Positions 18,775-28,019 of a DNA stretch of 38,387 nucleotides are shown here, piece by piece. Below the pieces are notes generated by a model. It worked only from the letters and a program-made list of their open reading frames with translations. It made no database searches and was not told the origin of the DNA. A program made the position numbers and the translations under genes. Positions within the stretch are counted from its first letter, which is position 1. Every line of letters starts with the position of its first letter. Source of the DNA: an uncultured Ruminococcus sp. (GTDB lineage: Bacteria; Bacillota; Clostridia; Oscillospirales; Acutalibacteraceae). Location of the stretch: contig CADBYC010000018.1 in the NCBI GenBank assembly GCA_902798755.1, positions 1-38,387 of the forward strand, read 5' to 3'.

Positions 18775-19470
18775 TCACGCTCTGATCAAGCGGCGGCGCT
18801 TGAGCTTATTGATGATGACGATGTACAGCAGTCCGATACCGCAGATCAGCAAAGCTCCCGCTATCAGCCACCATACGCAGCCCATGAACGGCAGCTTATC
18901 GGAAAAGCCGAATGCGCCCGCTTCGCTCCCCCAGTTGAGGAAGAAGTAGGGGTAATTCTTACCCGGGGCGAACTCCCACCCCTGCACATAGGCGACGGCG
19001 GCATAGATGACGTACAAAAGCGGCGGCACGGTCGCGTAAGGGATATGGCTCTTTTTCAGGTCGCCGAACACGCCCGTGACGAAGAAATCGGCGATCGCGC
19101 ACAGCGGCACGATAACGTGCGTGAGGACGTTCCTGATATTCCACGCCATGTCGCCTAAAGTCGGCGCGAGCACAAAGCTGAACACCCCGCCCGTGAGCGT
19201 GATGGCGACCGTTCCGACGAATTTGACGACAAACCACCAGTTCTTCACCCAGCGTTTCACGAACAGCAACACCGCTCCGAACGCGCAGATCAGCGCGATC
19301 GCGATGTTCGACTGGATGGTGAAGTACATGAAAACTCTCTTGCCGCTCATAAAGGCAAAGATACCGTCGGTCGCGCTGAGATAGACGCCGAACGCCGCCG
19401 AAACGACGACGACGAGCTTCAGGATCAGCGATATGAGCTTTCTTCCTAATGATAATACAGGATGATCCAT
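18775..19470 (-). CDS. Pr6Pr-like integral membrane protein
   Basis: The 231-residue protein has about six transmembrane helices and the block FMYFTIQSNIAIALICAFG, typical of Pr6Pr/FAR-17a-like membrane proteins. Conserved histidines occur in NVLTHVIVPL. The function is unknown; related proteins with this topology include lipid-amide hydrolases. GGAGG lies 11 bases before the ATG, a slightly long spacing. It may be co-transcribed with tex. Confidence 0.75.
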   Translation of the reverse strand: MDHPVLSLGRKLISLILKLVVVVSAAFGVYLSATDGIFAFMSGKRVFMYFTIQSNIAIALICAFGAVLLFVKRWVKNWWFVVKFVGTVAITLTGGVFSFVLAPTLGDMAWNIRNVLTHVIVPLCAIADFFVTGVFGDLKKSHIPYATVPPLLYVIYAAVAYVQGWEFAPGKNYPYFFLNWGSEAGAFGFSDKLPFMGCVWWLIAGALLICGIGLLYIVIINKLKRRRLIRA

Positions 19471-19622: not shown

Positions 19623-21476
19623 TTAATCAGAATTCAGCAGTGAATTAATCTCAACCATGATTTCCTTTACCGATTGGTAGCGCTCATCGGGATTTTTCTT
19701 AGTCGCTTTTTTGAATATCTCAAACAACGCCTCGCGCGTGCTTTCATCATCCCTGATGTAAGGCAATAAATCCGAAAGTATTACTCCGAATTCATAAATG
19801 TCGGACCGATAGTCAAGCACATTTCCGCGAGACCTTTCCGGACTGCGGTGTTTATCAATAATAAAAGTCTTATCTACGTATCTTGACCCGTTGTAATTTG
19901 ATTCACTGTAATCGCAAAGCCAAGGCACGTTATTTTTATCAATGATGATATTTCTCGGCGTCAGATCTCCGTAATAGATGTTTTTATCATGGAGCGCGCT
20001 TAATCCGTTTAAGATTCCGAGAGAAATCCTGAGAACAGGTCCAACAATATCGCTCCGCAGCCACGCCTTTTTGATATAATCCTCAAGAGTCTCTCCCCGG
20101 ATATATTTCATGATGAGACATGCGGGGTTGCTGAACTGTCGTTCAAAAATCGGACACAGATTGTCAGTTTGAAGCTCCTTTATATCCCAAAACAAGCCTC
20201 CGTCTGAGAATAAGGGAACATGAAAAGCATCCTGGGGCGAGTAAATTTTTATGGCTATTTCTTCAATGTTTCTGGTATCGAACGCGCGGTATACTCTGCT
20301 CAGAGAACTGTCGTCACAAAGCCGGATATCCGCGTAATGAGGATATTGTCTTTGAATATCGGCGATATAAGCGTCATCAATCGAGTCTTTTGTTTGATAA
20401 AAAAATGCAGTTTGGTCTGCGGAGGCTTTGTCATCTGTTTTATGATGTGCTGCATTCAAAGCGTTCAAAACAGGCTTGAACATCCAGCCGTAAGCTGATT
20501 TGGCTTCATAGTCCTCGTAAACGTCAAGAAGAAAGACAACGTCATCTAACCGTTTATACTTTACGGCGAGTTTTCCCAATGCTTCGGCACATGCAGCAAT
20601 CAAATAATAATCGTGCCGGCTGTCTCTTGTCAGTTTTTTCATATGCAATATCAAAAGGTCAACATCCTCGTTGGCGCCTTTTTCTGCCAGCTGCTCAAAC
20701 GCATATGCAGTCGGTTCTGTCGCGAGCTGTTCAATAGCTTCTTCGCGGTCATACGAATCGCGTATTTCTTTCTTGCTCAATATTGCCTGCAGATTATAAT
20801 CTAAACTGTTCCCTATGGAGTCAGCATCAAAAGAAACCGTTTTTTCAAAACCTTTTGACACAAAGATCAGATTGAATTTACCGAAAACATTGATTGCATT
20901 TACCTTAAAATCATTTCCGGAATTATGATCGATCCGCATCACCGGATGACTCTTGTCGTTCAGAAAAACATCGGTATTCACAGGACTCCAGACCGTGAGC
21001 ATGATATTTTTTACTTTGCTCTGAGGTGTTTCGCCTTGACCGTTTGCTCTCTCGTTGTCAGTATCAGGCTCAAATTCACCTACAAAATTTCTTATACTTG
21101 AAAGCAAGCCCTTGATTTCTCTTGTATCTTTTTCGATTTTTTGGACGGCAATCACCTGGTCGGTGCTGATATACAGCTCGAATTCATCGTTTAATACTAC
21201 ATTTTCAAGCTGGACCGGAATGATCGGTTTGCGGTAGTTTACCGCTCTTTCGACCTCTTTTGCTACCCATACGGAATTCAGCGCATCCTCCGATAGCATC
21301 AAAACAAAGCACGAGCAATTTTTGACGGCTCTGTTTATCACTTGGGCATATCTGCTTCCGGCAGGAATATCGCCCGGCGCCATCCATGTTTTTATTCCGC
21401 TTTCTTTTAACAGATCGCGCATCGCATCTGCTAAAGATTGATTTTTTGTGCTGTAACTGATAAACGCGTATCCCAT
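19623..21476 (-). CDS. TIR domain-Ser/Thr protein kinase fusion
   Basis: Three regions are visible in 617 residues. Residues 2-115 form a TIR domain: YAFISYSTKNQSLAD, WMAPGDIPAGSRYAQ, and VWVAKEVERAV with Glu74 at the NADase catalytic position (W70-xxx-E74). Residues about 150-370 have a beta-rich stretch then helical repeats (REEAIEQLATEPTAYAFEQL), resembling HEAT-like or TPR-like scaffolds. Residues about 386-615 form a Hanks-type kinase: Lys410 (AIKIY), Asp504 and Asn509 in YYGDLTPRN (HRD replaced by YGD), Asp522 in CDYSE (DFG variant), and SPER for APE. All key acidic and Lys residues remain, so kinase activity is plausible. It is last in a four-gene group, 133 bases after the vWA gene. 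Its job may be to couple phosphorylation to TIR NAD cleavage; that is inference. Confidence 0.9.
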   Translation of the reverse strand: MGYAFISYSTKNQSLADAMRDLLKESGIKTWMAPGDIPAGSRYAQVINRAVKNCSCFVLMLSEDALNSVWVAKEVERAVNYRKPIIPVQLENVVLNDEFELYISTDQVIAVQKIEKDTREIKGLLSSIRNFVGEFEPDTDNERANGQGETPQSKVKNIMLTVWSPVNTDVFLNDKSHPVMRIDHNSGNDFKVNAINVFGKFNLIFVSKGFEKTVSFDADSIGNSLDYNLQAILSKKEIRDSYDREEAIEQLATEPTAYAFEQLAEKGANEDVDLLILHMKKLTRDSRHDYYLIAACAEALGKLAVKYKRLDDVVFLLDVYEDYEAKSAYGWMFKPVLNALNAAHHKTDDKASADQTAFFYQTKDSIDDAYIADIQRQYPHYADIRLCDDSSLSRVYRAFDTRNIEEIAIKIYSPQDAFHVPLFSDGGLFWDIKELQTDNLCPIFERQFSNPACLIMKYIRGETLEDYIKKAWLRSDIVGPVLRISLGILNGLSALHDKNIYYGDLTPRNIIIDKNNVPWLCDYSESNYNGSRYVDKTFIIDKHRSPERSRGNVLDYRSDIYEFGVILSDLLPYIRDDESTREALFEIFKKATKKNPDERYQSVKEIMVEINSLLNSD

Positions 21477-21588
21477 AACCTATCCTCAACCGGTTTTGTC
21501 CTTTTTCTTATTTGACATATAACCATTTTTATTGCTGCCGGTTAGTTTCTTCCGTAACCAACATCTTCTTAGCATATTTACATCTAAT

Positions 21589-21617
21589 TATCTAATGTAT
21601 ATGATTGCATCATACAA
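21589..21617 (-). promoter_or_regulatory. Possible internal promoter before the TIR-kinase gene
   Basis: On the minus strand TTGTAT (21617-21612) and TAGATA (21594-21589) are 17 bases apart, overlapping the vWA stop codon. The 133-base gap, the largest in the group, makes separate transcription possible. The hexamers are weak. Confidence 0.35.
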
Positions 21618-22491
21618 AGCTAAAGAGATCAATATCCTCTCCGCTCTGCGTGTTATCAATCTGAGCATCGTCAAGAACCGGCGCGCTCTGCTTACTATTA
21701 CCTTCAGACACCATTACTCTCTGTTTTTCTCTTACATGACTCTTGATTTCATTAAAAATATTTCTGTAATCATCAGGATCAACCATACAGTATCTTCTGC
21801 TAAAATCCGGCGGTATCTTACCGAACGGATACATATTTCTCAATCTGGCCATATCCGCACTCTCCCCGATGCCCAACGGAAATACAAAGAGCTGCTCACT
21901 CTCAACCCTCTGACGGATTACATCAAACTCTCTGCTTGGATCATCTGTCGGTGTTCCGTCTGTCATAAAGACTAAGATCGGAGTATAGCTATCGTTTCCC
22001 GCCTCCTGCAAACGGTTCTGCATTTCATCAATCTGTGCCAGCGATGTTCTCAGACCATCTCCCATAGATGTTCTGTCTTTTTCTACGTGACACATACATG
22101 AATCCACATCCAAATACTCGCTGTCAAGGAAATCATATTTTACCCTGGCGTATTCACTGTATGTTACAATTGATACGGCAACTTTACTGCGCAGTTCCTT
22201 GTCGTTTTTTAATTCCCGCAACAGAGTCGAAAGCGCTTCATTCAACTTGTCAATTTTCTTATAGTACTTGTACCCCGGTCTAATATCTTTCAAATTAAAA
22301 AAGGATGTGTTTTCTCCGTCTCTTGCGCCTGACCCTAATGTCTTTCTAAGTCCGCCTTCTTGGATCCAGTAAGTACTCATTGAACCACTCACATCTACAC
22401 AAAAGCAGATCAAGGCACGGGGATCGCCATTATCAAGAATTCTTCTTTGCTGACGAAAATGTTCTTCTGAATAATAAGCCTCATTTGCCAT
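21610..22491 (-). CDS. TerY-like von Willebrand factor A domain protein
   Basis: Cytoplasmic vWA protein of 293 residues. The metal (MIDAS) site is complete: DVSGSM (Asp33, Ser35, Ser37), the Thr/Ser in DRTSMGDGL, and the Asp in FMTDGTPTDD. This form resembles TerY, which in tellurite-resistance-associated loci is found with a YegI-like kinase and a PP2C phosphatase. No PP2C gene is visible here. The long reading frame starts upstream, but the ATG at 22491 is preferred because of AGGAGGGGGAG before it and because it leaves a 14-base gap to the pseudokinase stop. It probably assembles a metal-dependent complex with the neighbouring kinase-like proteins (inference). Confidence 0.92.
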   Translation of the reverse strand: MANEAYYSEEHFRQQRRILDNGDPRALICFCVDVSGSMSTYWIQEGGLRKTLGSGARDGENTSFFNLKDIRPGYKYYKKIDKLNEALSTLLRELKNDKELRSKVAVSIVTYSEYARVKYDFLDSEYLDVDSCMCHVEKDRTSMGDGLRTSLAQIDEMQNRLQEAGNDSYTPILVFMTDGTPTDDPSREFDVIRQRVESEQLFVFPLGIGESADMARLRNMYPFGKIPPDFSRRYCMVDPDDYRNIFNEIKSHVREKQRVMVSEGNSKQSAPVLDDAQIDNTQSGEDIDLFSFV

Positions 22492-22505
22492 AATTCTCCC
22501 CCTCC

Positions 22506-24803
22506 TTATCTTCTGGCTCTGCAGTCTGCACACTTAGTCGGAAAATTAAAACCTTTTTTTCTATAAAACTCTGCTTCTCCGTTTGTTACCGCAAAAGACC
22601 GCCCGCAGTTTCTGCATCTTCCATATGAATATATACTGTTCTTCCAGACCTCTTGTTCTTTTTTAGCTTGATCAAGCAAACCGGCAAAACAATCATAGCA
22701 CACAGTTCTTGTCAGGTTTCGCTTTTTGTCAATGAACTCTCTCATCTGGTAAATTGGAATTTCTTTACCACAGCCGGAACACTTGGTCGTCCGTTTTTTA
22801 CACGACCTGCACCATTTTTGATTATGCCAACCAAATTCGCTCTTCCCGATTGCATGCATTATTTTTGTGCGATTAGTATAGAAATATTTTCTGTCACAGC
22901 ATTCACAGGTAAAATATACATCAGACTTATCTTCAGCGCATGGTAAACAGATCCTATACCCCATTGACCAGACATCAACTTTTTGCTTATTTACATACAT
23001 ATTCCTAAGGAAATAGAATTCCGGATGTTCTTGACCGCATATGCTGCATCTTGCAAAGACACGCTTTCCGTCTCGCCGAAATGTTTTTGGAAAAATACTA
23101 TGGCTATCATCGGAGTCGTTACCCTTCAGCTCTTTTAAGTAACCGTTAACCGCTCTCTTCCATTCATAATCATTCGGTCTTGTTCCGGGTGCGGATTTTT
23201 TTCCGTTCGCGTGGAAAGTGTTATAAAAAAGGTTGCACATCAAATAAGGCAGGTGATCCCAAGCGATTCTCCACACGCCCTGTGGACGTTCAGCATCACG
23301 CGATCGGCGCATATCACTGCCAATACCAAATGCAAACGATTTTTCAGCGATACTCTCTTCCTCGCTGTCACTCTTTCGCAGCGCATACGGGAATTTACCC
23401 GGCATCATAATCATAAAAATCAACAAAGCGATCTGATAGTTTTCCTGATCAGGTGTAAAAAACACCTGCTTTGAACCCGACTTAATCAACTCCGGAGGTG
23501 TGAATGTACGGTTTCTCGATACAGCCGGATATCCCTCGATCTGCCATGAATCGGAATCCACCAGATATGCTTCTTTGGGATTTACAATATATATCGTGGC
23601 CGGATTCAAACAGCCGAAATATATGCCGATTTTGTGCATCTGCATAACTTTAGTTAAAATCGTATCCGCTAATATACAAAGGTCTTCCCTCTTCCATTCA
23701 GGAAACACCTGGCTCATACCGGTTGCGCCGTTAAACACAGAACGAGTAAGCTGTGTTCCATGTGCTGTAGGTACAAGGATTCCGACGAATTGACCGCTTT
23801 CATTCATTAATTTATCTACGGGCCAACAAACCCCGGGTATCTGAATCCGCTCTCGGATCATACGGTCAGCCTTGTTTTCCCAAATATCGATCCCTAAATT
23901 GGCTGCAGTGTATATTTTTGCACAGTACTTCTCATCGCTTGTAGAATATGTAGCGGAATTATGATTAGACATCAACGGTTTCAAAAGACGTATCCTTGCT
24001 TTATTGCTATTTGCAATCACTGTCTCTCCTTGCCCCGGAACTCTGTTTGGTGAAGGTCTTTTAGATATCTTAACCATCTGATCCGTCCACTTAAACACTT
24101 TTTTCTCCGTATTATCCTTTGAGAAAGGTGCTTTTTCTCCTGTGGATAAGCTGCAGATACATCCATTCGCATCCAAGCCGTACCACCGCAAATTGACATT
24201 TGCTTCTCTCGCTGCCTTCTGTGCAACCAGTCCGTTTTCCATGCCGGTCGTCAAAAATAAAACCGCGCATCTCACATTACGCTCATGAAAAGACTTGAAG
24301 CATTCTTCGAACGACCTGCTATACCATTCTATATAATCTCCGGTTTTTAACAACTGTTTTTTTTCTGAGGTTAACTTTGCTTTTTCAAATCCCGGAACAA
24401 AATATACATTCCCGTTGTTGCCGGCACCTCTTCCTGCTCTCCAGCGTTCTGAAAAAACGCCAAACTTCTCACCGGAAATAAAATCCGCATCTACAAATAC
24501 TCTAATCTGACGATTACGTACTAATTCATTAATCTGAGTTCCATAGCGAGGCCAAAAAACTCTTGAGACACTATTACCGTTTCTTTTTTCAAACGTTTCT
24601 CCCTTATTGGAATCGGGAGCTTGAATCGTTCCGTTTTCTGCCTTCTTGACATCAGAGGGCGTCGCTCCCGATGTCTGTTCTGTTTTGACGCTTATTTCTT
24701 GCTTATGGACAACAGGTGTCTCGACTGTGTCTTCTGCTTTTCCTTTAGACGCCTTTTTTTCAGAATCAGAATTTGTGTTTTTGAAAAAACCAAATAATGC
24801 CAT
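22506..24803 (-). CDS. YegI-like pseudokinase with N-terminal alpha/beta domain and four zinc ribbons
   Basis: 765 residues. Residues 1-80 are a Lys/Glu/Ser-rich linker. Residues about 85-222 form an unassigned alpha/beta domain beginning RQIRVFVDADF and ending NLRWYGLDANG. Residues about 258-520 resemble the YegI-type kinase fold: Lys296 in CAKIYT, VDSDSWQ with Asp416/418, and FTPPELI. The catalytic loop is YFGCLNPATIY: Cys398 replaces the catalytic Asp and Thr the Asn, so transfer is probably lost. Residues 585-765 hold about eight paired-Cys knuckles (CSIC, CLPC, CECC, CRSC, CSGC, CYDC, CRNC, CADC), enough for four zinc ribbons that could bind nucleic acid or protein. It lies between a TIR gene (20 bases) and the vWA gene (14 bases). 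Confidence 0.85.
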   Translation of the reverse strand: MALFGFFKNTNSDSEKKASKGKAEDTVETPVVHKQEISVKTEQTSGATPSDVKKAENGTIQAPDSNKGETFEKRNGNSVSRVFWPRYGTQINELVRNRQIRVFVDADFISGEKFGVFSERWRAGRGAGNNGNVYFVPGFEKAKLTSEKKQLLKTGDYIEWYSRSFEECFKSFHERNVRCAVLFLTTGMENGLVAQKAAREANVNLRWYGLDANGCICSLSTGEKAPFSKDNTEKKVFKWTDQMVKISKRPSPNRVPGQGETVIANSNKARIRLLKPLMSNHNSATYSTSDEKYCAKIYTAANLGIDIWENKADRMIRERIQIPGVCWPVDKLMNESGQFVGILVPTAHGTQLTRSVFNGATGMSQVFPEWKREDLCILADTILTKVMQMHKIGIYFGCLNPATIYIVNPKEAYLVDSDSWQIEGYPAVSRNRTFTPPELIKSGSKQVFFTPDQENYQIALLIFMIMMPGKFPYALRKSDSEEESIAEKSFAFGIGSDMRRSRDAERPQGVWRIAWDHLPYLMCNLFYNTFHANGKKSAPGTRPNDYEWKRAVNGYLKELKGNDSDDSHSIFPKTFRRDGKRVFARCSICGQEHPEFYFLRNMYVNKQKVDVWSMGYRICLPCAEDKSDVYFTCECCDRKYFYTNRTKIMHAIGKSEFGWHNQKWCRSCKKRTTKCSGCGKEIPIYQMREFIDKKRNLTRTVCYDCFAGLLDQAKKEQEVWKNSIYSYGRCRNCGRSFAVTNGEAEFYRKKGFNFPTKCADCRARR

Positions 24804-24823
24804 AGTATACCTCCTCGATCGTC

Positions 24824-25582
24824 TTAATTGCCCAGTAATACCCGTCGTATGTATTCCAGCAAGCCATCGGTCCTTTTTTCGGTTCTGGGCATCGAAATCA
24901 TCACTTCATAAATCTCCTGTACTCTTTTTTTTGAGCTGAGATCACCGTCTTCGACTTTTTTCATATAATATACCAGCAAACTTCGACCTATCTGCTCGTC
25001 ATGATCTCTTTCCCAAAATCCCTCTGCCTCTGCTATCCATTCACCTTTCATATATTCTCTTTTGTCGGTACTTGCCAACTTATGAAGATTTCTGATCAAT
25101 TCCTGTTTTTTTATTGTATGTATCCAGTTCAACACTTCTAAGCGATCAGTAAACGCTGTCTTCCCTAAAAACATGGAGTCCAATAGCTCTGCTTCTTTAC
25201 AATCCATTTCATCGCTGATGTACACACGAGCGGCATCATCCCCACCCGCTTTATATCGTGATTGATGAAATGTGTTTACCTCTTCATAGACCTCTCTGAG
25301 TGTTCCGTTTTCTCTATACTTCGACAATTGGCCCGCTTCATTGCGCGGTATTCTTTTATCAGCTACTAAAAGGAACATAGGGGTTCTTGCCACTACTCGC
25401 GGCGTTTCTCCGTACTGTCCATACTTCTTTGTTTCCGGATGAAAGTACACTCGTATCATTCGCCCATTAACAGTTTTTTGACTGCTCAAGAAATTATAGA
25501 GATCTCTGGCAGCATTTTCCGATCCATTCTGACTGTTTCCGTAATATGCCAAAAACACATCAAACTGTTCATCGTCCAACAC
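24824..25582 (-). CDS. TIR-like domain protein, first gene of the group
   Basis: The N-terminal 130 residues resemble a TIR fold: FDVFLAYYGNSQNGSENAA, RVYFHPETKKYGQYGETP, MFLLVADKRI and LREVYEEVNTF, where a Glu could be the NADase catalytic residue. The C-terminal 120 residues are helical (EWIAEAEGFWERDHDEQIG) and end LLEYIRRVLLGN. I do not recognise the tail. The GTG at 25582 is preferred over an upstream TTG because AAAGGAGG lies 7 bases before it. It is followed after 20 bases by the pseudokinase gene. It could be the effector or a sensor of the group; Glu assignment is tentative. Confidence 0.75.
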   Translation of the reverse strand: MLDDEQFDVFLAYYGNSQNGSENAARDLYNFLSSQKTVNGRMIRVYFHPETKKYGQYGETPRVVARTPMFLLVADKRIPRNEAGQLSKYRENGTLREVYEEVNTFHQSRYKAGGDDAARVYISDEMDCKEAELLDSMFLGKTAFTDRLEVLNWIHTIKKQELIRNLHKLASTDKREYMKGEWIAEAEGFWERDHDEQIGRSLLVYYMKKVEDGDLSSKKRVQEIYEVMISMPRTEKRTDGLLEYIRRVLLGN

Positions 25583-25990: not shown

Positions 25991-26212
25991 CTATGTGCGC
26001 TCATCCATATCATCCTGAATATACTCTACAACCTCTCCGAAATCCGTATTGAGAACAGCACATATTCTCTCAAGGACCTGCAATGTAACTTCCTGATCTT
26101 TCTTCATTCTCGTCAATGTGTTAGGAGCTATATCTGCCCTTCTACGTAGATCTGCGGGAGTCATTTTCTTATCGATCAACAGCTTCCACAGCTTATTATA
26201 TGAAACAGCCAT
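25991..26212 (-). CDS. Small XRE-family regulator
   Basis: A 73-residue Cro/C1-type helix-turn-helix protein: LWKLLIDKKMTPADLRRRA, IAPNTLTRMKKDQ as the recognition region, VLERICAVLNTDFGEVVEYI. It has no extra domain. A TTGACA/TATAAT promoter precedes it. It reads in the same direction as the TIR-pseudokinase-vWA group, with a 408-base spacer between. It is the most likely local regulator of that group, but it could act alone. Confidence 0.9.
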   Translation of the reverse strand: MAVSYNKLWKLLIDKKMTPADLRRRADIAPNTLTRMKKDQEVTLQVLERICAVLNTDFGEVVEYIQDDMDERT

Positions 26213-26243: not shown

Positions 26244-26273
26244 ATTATATGCCCATTAATTCTCTCTTGTCAA
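26244..26273 (-). promoter_or_regulatory. Promoter of the XRE gene
   Basis: On the minus strand TTGACA (26273-26268) and TATAAT (26249-26244) are 18 bases apart, 31 bases before the start. Both hexamers match consensus. Confidence 0.75.
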
Positions 26274-26390: not shown

Positions 26391-26487
26391 GCGGAGAATT
26401 TCGCATAACAAGGCGGAGGGCGCAGGCAGGCTGGCGCCTGTCAAGACTGACAACGCAGTTATGCGGAATTCTCCGCAATAGATATTA
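26391..26487. mobile_element. Dispersed hairpin repeat, copy 2 (complete)
   Basis: The 19-base arms at 26391-26409 and 26458-26476 pair with one mismatch. The core between them contains the 19 bases shared with 12-30, which can form an inner CAGGC/GCCTG stem. AGATATTA occurs directly on both sides (26383-26390 and 26480-26487), which might be a target duplication. However GCAATAGAT also ends the first copy, so part of the right flank belongs to the element. No transposase is encoded. Confidence 0.6.
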
Positions 26488-26602: not shown

Positions 26603-26615
26603 TCACCCCCTGACA

Positions 26616-26767
26616 TAAAGGGGCTGTCGCACTAAGACATCCCAAAAAACTAGATCGGGCAGCCCGAAAGGGTTGCCCGGTCAGCGCTTTCAAAGTATAA
26701 TTTAATTGCAGTAAAACCACACAGAAAGGCTGCCGCAAAAACTTCTCGTTTTGCGACAGCCCCTTTA
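26616..26767. mobile_element. Transposase-less insertion element (MITE) with IS-type ends
   Basis: TAAAGGGGCTGTCGCA (26616-26631) is a perfect inverted repeat of TGCGACAGCCCCTTTA (26752-26767). The interior is about 120 bases and encodes nothing; it includes a GGGCAGCCCGAAAGGGTTGCCC hairpin in split form near 26660-26680. The ends resemble those of IS elements common in Firmicutes (IS1182-like by memory). It is a non-autonomous copy. Confidence 0.75.
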
Positions 26768-26957
26768 TTCTTAGGATCTCTTGAAATACGAAGGCATATT
26801 CATCCGCAAAAGCAGGCGATTGTTTATCATCATCAATTTAATTTTATCATATTTGCGAAAATGATAAAATTGATATTGACAATGAATATACTGATACTTA
26901 TAATATAATTGTATCATAATAGAGCTAAATGAATAAATTGAAAAGGATTTGAGATAG
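26768..26957 (+). promoter_or_regulatory. fic promoter with long palindromic operator
   Basis: ATTTTATCAT (26841-26850) and ATGATAAAAT (26861-26870) are perfect inverted repeats around a 10-base centre. The -35 TTGACA (26876-26881) starts 6 bases further on, and TATAAT (26899-26904) follows at 17 bases. The palindrome abuts the -35, so a dimeric regulator could control the Fic gene. The Fic C-terminal winged helix is one candidate binder. The rest of this interval shows no gene. Confidence 0.75.
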
Positions 26958-28019
26958 ATGAATAAGCCGAATTATGTATCCGGTATTAAAGAGCTGTTGA
27001 AGCCTGATATCGTATCGATGCTGACAAAGATACATGAATACAAGGGACAACAAACGCTGTTTATCGAAGCGGAAAGCAATACCCTCACTCAGCTATTGGT
27101 AATCGCCAAGATACAAAGCACCGAGGCGTCTAATAAGATCGAGGGCATTTATACTACTGATCAGCGCTTGAAGAAGCTCGTTCTTGACAAGACCAACCCC
27201 CGCAACAGAAGCGAGCAGGAGATCGCCGGCTACCGCGATGTTCTCGCTACGATCCACGAAAACTATGATTATATCCCGCTCAGACCGAGTATGATTCTCC
27301 AGCTCCACCGCGACCTTTACAAATACAGCGGCAGCTCCGTCGGCGGCAGCTACAAAAATGCCGACAATGTGATCGCAGAAGAAGACGCGGAGGGTAACCG
27401 CTTTGTCAGGTTCCAACCCGTACCGGCATGGGAAACGCCCGAGGCGATCGACGACATCTGTACCGCTTACAACGAAGCATTACAGGATCCGGACGCCGAT
27501 CCTCTGCTGCTGATCCCGATGTTCATACTCGACTTCCTCTGCATTCACCCGTTCAACGACGGCAACGGCCGCATGAGCCGACTGCTCACCCTGCTTCTGC
27601 TCTATCGCAGCGGCTATATCGTCGGCAATTATATCAGTATCGAGAAGATCATCGAGCAGAGCAAGGATACCTACTATGAAGCCTTGCAGTACAGCTCCGA
27701 GAATTGGCACGATGGCAAGAACGACTATGCCCCGTTCGTACAATATCTGCTCGGCGTACTGGTATCGGCACACAGAGAGTTTGCCTCACGCGTAGAAGTA
27801 CTGTCGGCAAAGAATCTGAGCAAGCCCGAGCGTATCCGCGAGATCATCAAAGGCACCCTCGGCAGGATCACCAAATCTGAGATCATGGAGCAATGCCCCG
27901 ATATCAGCCAGGTGACGGTACAGCGCACGCTTGCCGACCTGCAAAGCAAGGGCGAGATCATCAAAATCAGCGGAGGTCGCTACACCTCCTACACATGGAA
28001 CAGGGAGAATGAAGCATGA
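26958..28019 (+). CDS. Class II Fic-domain protein with C-terminal winged helix
   Basis: Fic proteins usually transfer AMP from ATP to a hydroxyl side chain. The catalytic motif HPFNDGNGRMSRLL (His197) is intact. An inhibitory alpha-helix motif S58-NKI-E62-G63 lies N-terminal to the Fic core, the class II arrangement that keeps the enzyme off. Residues about 290-350 form a winged helix-turn-helix (RIREIIKGTLGRITKSEI, then VTVQRTLADLQSKGEI), which may bind DNA. At 353 residues it is the usual length. Its stop overlaps the ATG of an hsdM relic by 4 bases (ATGA). Fic genes embedded in type I restriction loci are known in clostridia, which fits this position. Confidence 0.93.
   Translation: MNKPNYVSGIKELLKPDIVSMLTKIHEYKGQQTLFIEAESNTLTQLLVIAKIQSTEASNKIEGIYTTDQRLKKLVLDKTNPRNRSEQEIAGYRDVLATIHENYDYIPLRPSMILQLHRDLYKYSGSSVGGSYKNADNVIAEEDAEGNRFVRFQPVPAWETPEAIDDICTAYNEALQDPDADPLLLIPMFILDFLCIHPFNDGNGRMSRLLTLLLLYRSGYIVGNYISIEKIIEQSKDTYYEALQYSSENWHDGKNDYAPFVQYLLGVLVSAHREFASRVEVLSAKNLSKPERIREIIKGTLGRITKSEIMEQCPDISQVTVQRTLADLQSKGEIIKISGGRYTSYTWNRENEA

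What the first reader, a model, noticed from the sequence alone, without database searches (positions are those of the whole stretch)
19623..25582. Four-gene TIR / YegI-like pseudokinase / TerY-like vWA / TIR-kinase system
Seen: four minus-strand genes, gaps of 20, 14 and 133 bases, AT-richer than flanks, next to a regulator and a restriction scar. Two proteins have TIR folds, one is a complete-looking kinase fused to TIR, one is a kinase-like zinc protein, and one is a vWA with an intact metal site. Known: TIR domains in bacterial defence cleave or modify NAD; TerY-P triads pair vWA, kinase and PP2C. Inferred: a signalling cascade in which sensing by the zinc/pseudokinase-vWA complex activates TIR NAD depletion. 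I know no named defence system with this exact set.
Basis: partly seen in the sequence, partly recalled or inferred. Interest (0 to 1): 0.88.

Follow-up and report, generated by a model that had tools for sequence, protein, structure and literature searches.

The report
Phosphatase-less pseudokinase–vWA system, swappable effectors
A bacterial genome carries a compact three-gene system, possibly anti-phage, in which a kinase that seems to have lost its activity and a von Willebrand domain protein travel with an interchangeable effector enzyme; relatives of the system carry a different enzyme in the same slot.

Summary
The four genes exist as described, but the system is not the four-gene set. 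In ten assemblies the same three genes occur in the same order: effector, YegI-like kinase with zinc fingers, vWA. The fourth gene (TIR-kinase) is in none of the other nine, so it is probably a neighbour. The kinase/vWA pair is related to TerY-P-like triads (kinase, vWA, PP2C phosphatase). The ten PP2C-free loci form one clade (100/99) in which the kinase has lost its Gly-loop and catalytic Asp (Cys, or Tyr in one); the 19 PP2C-bearing relatives compared keep both. The effector slot varies: an alpha/beta, TIR-like protein (window and two others), a calcineurin-like phosphoesterase resembling anti-phage DS-8/DS-9 proteins (two whole, three partial), or a Pfam-proven TIR (two). The phosphoesterases share only a C-terminal helical domain with the window protein. 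My tests did not confirm the TIR fold of the window's first gene. Best reading: a phosphorylation-independent sensor/scaffold controlling swappable effectors. Defence is inferred, not shown. Nine literature searches listed no description of it. New variant of a known kind.

The parts
24824..25582 (-). Effector gene, 252 aa: N-terminal alpha/beta domain of TIR-like pattern (invariant Glu101), C-terminal helical domain
   Evidence: End-to-end relatives found only in L045 and L051 (phmmer 4e-44, 3e-56). AF2 model (mean pLDDT 67.6) shows alternating strands and helices in the N-part at low confidence; aa 150-250 mostly at 80-94.
24833..25114 (-). C-terminal helical domain (aa 157-250), shared with phosphoesterase-type effectors of L043, L046, L047, L048; possible docking domain
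   Evidence: phmmer domain matches 1e-16 to 3e-11 confined to query aa 157-250
22506..24803 (-). Pseudokinase-zinc protein, 765 aa: low-confidence 1-80, alpha/beta domain about 85-217, kinase fold about 256-575, zinc-finger region about 580-765
   Evidence: catalytic-loop Asp replaced by Cys398, Gly-loop absent
21610..22491 (-). TerY-like vWA protein, 293 aa, MIDAS motif intact
   Evidence: PF00092 1.5e-10; MIDAS DxSxS, T and D visible in the alignment and in the eight relatives checked
19623..21476 (-). TIR-kinase fusion, 617 aa; neighbour, probably not part of the core system
   Evidence: TIR_2 2.2e-20 and Pkinase 5.2e-15; not found in 9 of 9 related loci; among 200 same-family genomes no match other than its own covered both TIR and kinase parts (E limit 1e-15)
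25991..26212 (-). Cro/C1-type HTH regulator, 73 aa, upstream of the effector gene; link to the system not shown
   Evidence: HTH_26 2.3e-20
26244..26273 (-). Perfect sigma-70 consensus promoter TTGACA-18-TATAAT ahead of the HTH gene
   Evidence: pattern match only; 21 promoter-like sites found in the stretch against 15.8 expected

Best explanation
A three-gene conflict system (effector, pseudokinase-zinc protein, vWA) descended from TerY-P/YegI-type kinase-vWA-PP2C triads. The ancestral phosphorylation switch was dropped: the phosphatase is gone and the kinase is dead or nearly so. The kinase fold and zinc fingers now act as sensor and scaffold with the metal-dependent vWA protein. They hold the effector, probably through its C-terminal helical domain, inactive until a trigger such as a phage product or nucleic acid is bound. 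The released or assembled effector then acts by its variable N-terminal enzyme: TIR-like in the window, metallophosphoesterase in relatives. It would stop growth or kill the infected cell. Shown here: gene set, order, absence of PP2C together with loss of kinase motifs, single clade, effector swap, shared C-terminal domain in most members. Inferred: the complex, the trigger, the enzyme activity and defence.
For: Ten PP2C-free loci share the order effector-kinase-vWA with short gaps or overlap. No PP2C profile match (E <= 1e-6) lies in the stretches held for them, against 19 PP2C-bearing relatives. Kinase motifs: catalytic Asp kept in 19 of 19 PP2C loci and 0 of 10 PP2C-free loci; Gly-loop kept in 19 of 19 and 0 of 9 readable. 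One clade, support 100/99, still 99/98 with motif columns removed. Kinase fold by Foldseek 2.3e-10. Effector swap: Metallophos 9.4e-12 and 7.5e-13 in L046/L047, TIR_2 1.4e-14 in L049 and 1.6e-10 in L034. Shared C-terminal domain. The L047 phosphoesterase matches anti-phage DS8 (1.4e-16) and DS9 (1.3e-11) models, far below their cut-offs, and a PADLOC 'Effector/Endonuclease' (4.7e-26); L046 likewise but weaker. Seven flanking genes sampled in L045, L047 and L051 are two tRNA synthetases, a pentapeptide-repeat protein, a PLP decarboxylase, a metallo-beta-lactamase-fold protein, an HD protein and a glycosidase, as expected for a cassette that sits in varied places. Three of 161 same-genus genomes have it.
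Against: No defence assay exists. The absence of PP2C and the motif loss trace to one clade, so their link rests on one evolutionary event, and the loci were gathered by similarity, not at random. E. coli YegI itself is reported to lack conserved motifs yet autophosphorylates (a reference title and a passage seen in PMC13232886), so 'dead' is not certain. The TIR assignment of the window effector failed every test. The shared C-terminal domain was not matched in the TIR proteins of L049 and L034, so the docking idea does not cover all ten. L039 keeps the catalytic Asp with no PP2C or vWA found on its 8.7 kb contig. Viral-contig scans and effector searches in plasmids and phages found no member. 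The host genome has three PP2C genes over the cut-off elsewhere that could serve in trans.
Confidence: 0.5

Rival explanations
1. The kinase is atypically active and the system remains a phosphorylation switch, with phosphatase supplied in trans.
For: E. coli YegI is reported to lack conserved motifs but to autophosphorylate, and the PP2C PphC dephosphorylates it (passage and reference title in PMC13232886). Lys296 is kept in 9 of 9 readable members and the first Asp of DxD in 9 of 10. G000 has three PP2C_2 genes over the cut-off elsewhere.
Against: The PP2C-bearing relatives nearest to this clade in the tree have a GGEG loop and a GDIN catalytic loop; this clade has lost both. PP2C was found in none of its loci.
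Confidence: 0.2
2. One reading: the TIR-kinase is a component and supplies the catalytic kinase that the pseudokinase lacks.
For: Same strand, 133 bases downstream, in the same low-GC stretch. Its kinase domain matches Pfam (5.2e-15) and by eye keeps HxD-like (YGD) and DFG-like (CDY) Asp residues (sequence), though its Gly-loop looks degenerate.
Against: Not found in 9 of 9 other loci of the system. Its TIR domain occurs in other proteins at 49-54% identity, three times in tandem in G425. In 200 same-family genomes no match other than its own covered both domains.
Confidence: 0.12
3. A stress or metal-sensing system, as proposed for Ter-linked triads, not anti-phage.
For: TerY-P triads are described as involved in tellurite resistance and as hypothesised metal-sensing switches (passage in PMC11090510). 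The protein is zinc-rich.
Against: Effector swapping between TIR and phosphoesterase and the resemblance to DS-8/DS-9 anti-phage models fit conflict systems better. None of the neighbours that I put to Pfam was named a Ter protein; many neighbours were not put to it.
Confidence: 0.15

Closest known systems
TerY-P triad (vWA, PP2C, Ser/Thr kinase with zinc ribbon or OB-fold)
   Same: Adjacent kinase-Zn and TerY-like vWA genes; homologous by sequence to PP2C-bearing triads
   Different: No PP2C, kinase motifs lost, an effector gene directly upstream
E. coli YegI / PphC (YegK) / YegL
   Same: Kinase region matches YegI-annotated records at about 26% identity
   Different: No phosphatase partner in the locus; catalytic Asp replaced
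MoxR-vWA ternary and GTPase-centric conflict systems (Kaur et al. 2020; passages of PMC7159879)
   Same: Variable effectors including TIR and calcineurin-type phosphoesterases; kinases with disrupted catalytic residues also reported there
   Different: Those are centred on MoxR ATPases or GTPases; the three-gene unit here encodes neither
DS-8 / DS-9 anti-phage phosphoesterases (NCBIfam NF053861, NF053862)
   Same: Phosphoesterase domain of the swapped effector in L046 and L047
   Different: Far below the curated cut-offs; different C-terminal half; operon contexts not compared
Thoeris / SAVED-TIR type TIR effectors
   Same: TIR of the neighbour TIR-kinase matches ThsB_TIR and SAVED_TIR models
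   Different: That gene is not part of the core; the window's first gene matches none of these models

Membership tests
TerY-P | TerY-like vWA protein | tested here: met
   vWA profile built from triads and clade hits the gene (2e-95; the window member is in the model); phmmer with triad vWAs hits the clade's vWAs; PADLOC TerY only 0.0081
TerY-P | PP2C phosphatase in the operon | tested here: not met
   No PP2C profile hit in the window or in the stretches held for the nine related loci
TerY-P | Ser/Thr kinase with active-site residues | tested here: not met
   Catalytic Asp is Cys (Tyr in L045) and Gly-loop lost
TerY-P | C-terminal zinc ribbon on the kinase | tested here: met
   zf_Tbcl 6.4e-7 and conserved Cys pairs
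TIR effector (24824-25582) | Recognisable TIR domain | tested here: inconclusive
   No library match; profile-profile score 15.0, below the reversed control (19.1) and the top shuffles of 100; model of beta/alpha pattern but low confidence
TIR effector (24824-25582) | Conserved Glu after the third strand | tested here: met
   Glu101 identical in the three family members; its role is inferred from TIR enzymes in general (recalled)
Named anti-phage system | Match to PADLOC models covering the set | tested here: not met
   No model for the first two proteins, weak TerY for the third; pseudokinase proteins of L045, L049, L050 and vWA of L050 none
Anti-phage defence | Protection against phage | not testable with these tools
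   needs plating assay

The most novel reading that the evidence does not exclude
A family of bacterial immune systems that abandoned phosphorylation: a TerY-P kinase turned into a pseudokinase receptor which, with a vWA partner, controls interchangeable effectors (TIR, TIR-like, metallophosphoesterase), in most members through a common C-terminal docking domain. This would parallel plant and animal pseudokinases that act as immune decoys or switches (recalled).
Probability: 0.45. Interest if true: 0.8.

Novelty: new variant of a known kind. Interest (0 to 1): 0.66.

Why it matters
It offers a natural case where a kinase-phosphatase switch appears to have been converted into a non-catalytic one while an effector slot became swappable. 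That makes the role of the vWA-kinase pair in TerY-P systems, which the paper passage I read calls hypothesised, directly testable: whatever the pair does here probably does not need phosphate transfer. It also adds a candidate defence cassette in Clostridia, several from animal guts by record title, that the 2023 PADLOC models do not detect as a system.

Tried and rejected
Four-gene unit: rejected, since the TIR-kinase is in 0 of 9 related loci. In L045 only about 0.5 kb follows the vWA gene, but no plus-strand reading frame matching it begins there.

TIR homology of the 252-aa protein: Pfam (E up to 1 whole, up to 10 for the N-part), NCBIfam to E 10, PADLOC, PHROGs, a PDB profile search, Foldseek (best E 0.23) and hhalign all failed. 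The first hhalign run gave E 0.067 with a co-linear alignment. With a cleaner TIR alignment the score was 15.0, below the reversed control (19.1) and at least eight of 100 shuffles (top 21.2), so I do not count it.

PIN domain in the N-part of the pseudokinase protein: PP2C-type relatives have a PIN-like start (annotated PIN in L003). hhalign of the clade's version against them gave E 0.41, and L046, L047 and L051 lack that region. Left open.

Mobility: viral scans with three queries and effector searches in plasmids and phages found no member of the clade. The kinase protein hit one phage record at 25% identity and 47 plasmid records (30 listed, best listed identity 30%), of which I read three, all with PP2C; the others were not read. 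dN/dS between L043 and L044: too few differences to use.

Rows dropped or not read: L039 (contig-cut, no PP2C or vWA, Asp kept) was left out of the 10-versus-19 count; the tree left it unlabelled and one search left it out together with L040, L044, L082 and L083. L050 is the same contig as L034, L080 as L043 and L081 as L044; each pair is counted once. In one search, 218 of 391 genomes matched, most listed ones through the zinc-finger tail alone; I extended eight loci. Of ten loci of one genus (g66) there I extended four. L020 was not extended. L048's pseudokinase gene is split by a frame change; its two frames were used apart and only the second entered alignments and trees.

Full report
What is there. 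Four minus-strand genes lie at 24824-25582, 22506-24803, 21610-22491 and 19623-21476 with gaps of 20, 14 and 133 bases, in a stretch of 40-44% GC beside 53-61% GC. In two same-genus genomes with matching DNA, the match to the left neighbours stops at window position 19442 or 19476, so the stretch looks specific to this genome; one of those contigs ends about 2.5 kb further on, and the right-hand boundary was not found. An HTH regulator (HTH_26, 2.3e-20) with a perfect consensus promoter lies upstream.

Which genes belong together. A scan of the genome-contig collection (one genome for each of 84,980 species) with a two-row alignment of the kinase protein returned 12 loci; nine belong to the PP2C-free type and three are PP2C-bearing triads. 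One of the nine (L050) is the contig already seen as L034. The PP2C-free set is therefore ten: window, L034, L043, L044, L045, L046, L047, L048, L049, L051. In all ten the order is effector, kinase-zinc protein, vWA, with gaps of 0-30 bases or a short overlap (the effector is cut by the contig end in L043, L044 and L048). Seven flanking genes sampled in L045, L047 and L051 differ from locus to locus: two tRNA synthetases, a pentapeptide-repeat protein, a decarboxylase, a metallo-beta-lactamase-fold protein, an HD protein and a glycosidase. The TIR-kinase gene is in none of the other nine. Its TIR domain occurs in other proteins, and among 200 genomes of the family no match other than its own covered both domains. 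I therefore take the first three genes as the system and the fourth as a neighbour.

Ancestry. The kinase protein and vWA are homologous to kinase-vWA-PP2C triads: Lysinibacillus, Paenarthrobacter and Fusobacterium records and other genomes, the arrangement called TerY-P (definition read in passages of PMC11090510). I compared 19 loci that have PP2C (L002, L003, L004, L035-L038, L040, L041, L052-L054, L061-L065, L082, L083) with the ten that do not. The catalytic-loop Asp is present in 19 of 19 and in 0 of 10 (Cys in nine, Tyr in L045). The Gly-loop (GGEG or GAEG) is present in 19 of 19 and in 0 of the 9 readable. The ATP-binding Lys is kept in all 9 readable, and the first Asp of DxD is lost only in L034. 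A tree of the kinase domain places the ten in one clade (100/99, 30 rows), and still 99/98 when the motif columns, long branches and one duplicate are left out (25 rows). So the absence of phosphatase and the loss of kinase motifs go together, but as one evolutionary event, not ten, and in a sample gathered by similarity. One further locus (L039) keeps the Asp and shows neither PP2C nor vWA on a short contig; it is divergent and was not counted.

The effector slot. In the window, L045 and L051 the effector is a 252-269 aa protein (34-39% identity). In L046 and L047 it is a calcineurin-like phosphoesterase (PF00149, 9.4e-12 and 7.5e-13) with the expected motifs DxH, GDxxH, GNHD, GHH and HGDxH. 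L043 shows the later part of the same protein, including its last two motifs, and L048 and L044 only its tail. The phosphoesterases match the window protein only in the C-terminal domain, aa 157-250 (3e-11 to 1e-16 in L043, L046, L047, L048). In L049 and L034 the slot holds Pfam-proven TIR proteins (1.4e-14; 1.6e-10), in which that C-terminal domain was not matched; L034 has a RyR-domain gene upstream. The effector type changes at least three times on the kinase tree. The phosphoesterases' nearest curated models are the anti-phage DS-8 and DS-9 proteins (best 1.4e-16 and 1.3e-11, far below the models' cut-offs) and a PADLOC 'Effector/Endonuclease' (best 4.7e-26).

Is the window effector a TIR? 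Undecided. The strand-helix order of a low-confidence model and an invariant Glu101 after the third strand fit, as does the slot being filled by true TIRs in L049 and L034. Every database and profile test failed. I put TIR-like at about three in four; that figure is a judgement.

Structure of the kinase protein. The AF2 model (mean pLDDT 78.4) gives an alpha/beta domain at about 85-217, a kinase fold (Foldseek best 6u2h, E 2.3e-10) and a zinc-finger tail. L046, L047 and L051 lack the first domain, so it is not needed in every member.

Mechanism. Best reading: the pseudokinase-zinc protein and the vWA (MIDAS residues conserved) form a sensor/scaffold that keeps the effector off and releases or assembles it on a trigger. 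The common C-terminal domain of most effectors is the likely dock. Everything after the anatomy is inference. The main caution is that E. coli YegI is reported to lack conserved motifs yet autophosphorylates and is dephosphorylated by the PP2C PphC (passage and reference title in PMC13232886), so an atypical activity remains possible. The host has three PP2C genes over the cut-off elsewhere.

What is known. TIR and calcineurin-type enzymes as variable effectors, and kinases with disrupted active sites, are described in other vWA- or GTPase-centred conflict systems (passages of PMC7159879; passages of PMC8195603, for the effectors). For this exact arrangement, nine literature searches (one search listed 20 of 45 papers) listed no paper that I recognised as describing it. 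Beyond listings I saw the abstract of PMC13174449, which describes another TIR-like system, and passages of PMC12839542, which do not describe it. The library holds open-licence papers only, and the original TerY-P paper was not read. Distribution of the PP2C-free type: 3 of 161 same-genus genomes, 1 of 300 same-family genomes (the window's own), and 1 of 70 in the family of G324, all at a 1e-20 limit.

Verdict. A new variant of the TerY-P kind that fails two of its defining features (PP2C, active kinase) and has a swappable effector.

Noticed in passing
window 26958-28019 (+): Fic protein (Fic 3.3e-15; PADLOC SoFic 3.7e-39) next to the low-GC stretch; the PADLOC library holds SoFic among known or candidate defence proteins.
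   Followed up: no
window 26391-26476 and 26615-26768: Two small elements bounded by inverted repeats (19 nt arms at 95%, 17 nt arms at 100%), looking like MITEs between the regulator and Fic. Copy number not counted.
   Followed up: no
G425:C185 (L085): Three TIR proteins on one contig, TIR domains 50-54% identical to that of the window's TIR-kinase.
   Followed up: no
L034 / L050 (G324:C14): A RyR-domain gene (5e-35) precedes the TIR-Sel1 / pseudokinase / vWA genes, and a 1457-aa protein precedes that.
   Followed up: partly
L049 4511-6100 and 11095-11949: An M48 peptidase with Sel1 repeats two genes upstream of the TIR gene and an FRG-domain gene downstream of the vWA gene.
   Followed up: no
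L035 and L002: PP2C-type triads preceded by a protein that by eye looks like HTH plus PIN; L035 has two vWA genes in a row.
   Followed up: no
L051 5712-5794: tRNA-Leu about 500 bases upstream of the three-gene set, a possible insertion site.
   Followed up: no
L045 5096-6901 (-): Gene upstream of the three-gene set that by eye looks like a serine recombinase (sequence; not put to a library).
   Followed up: no
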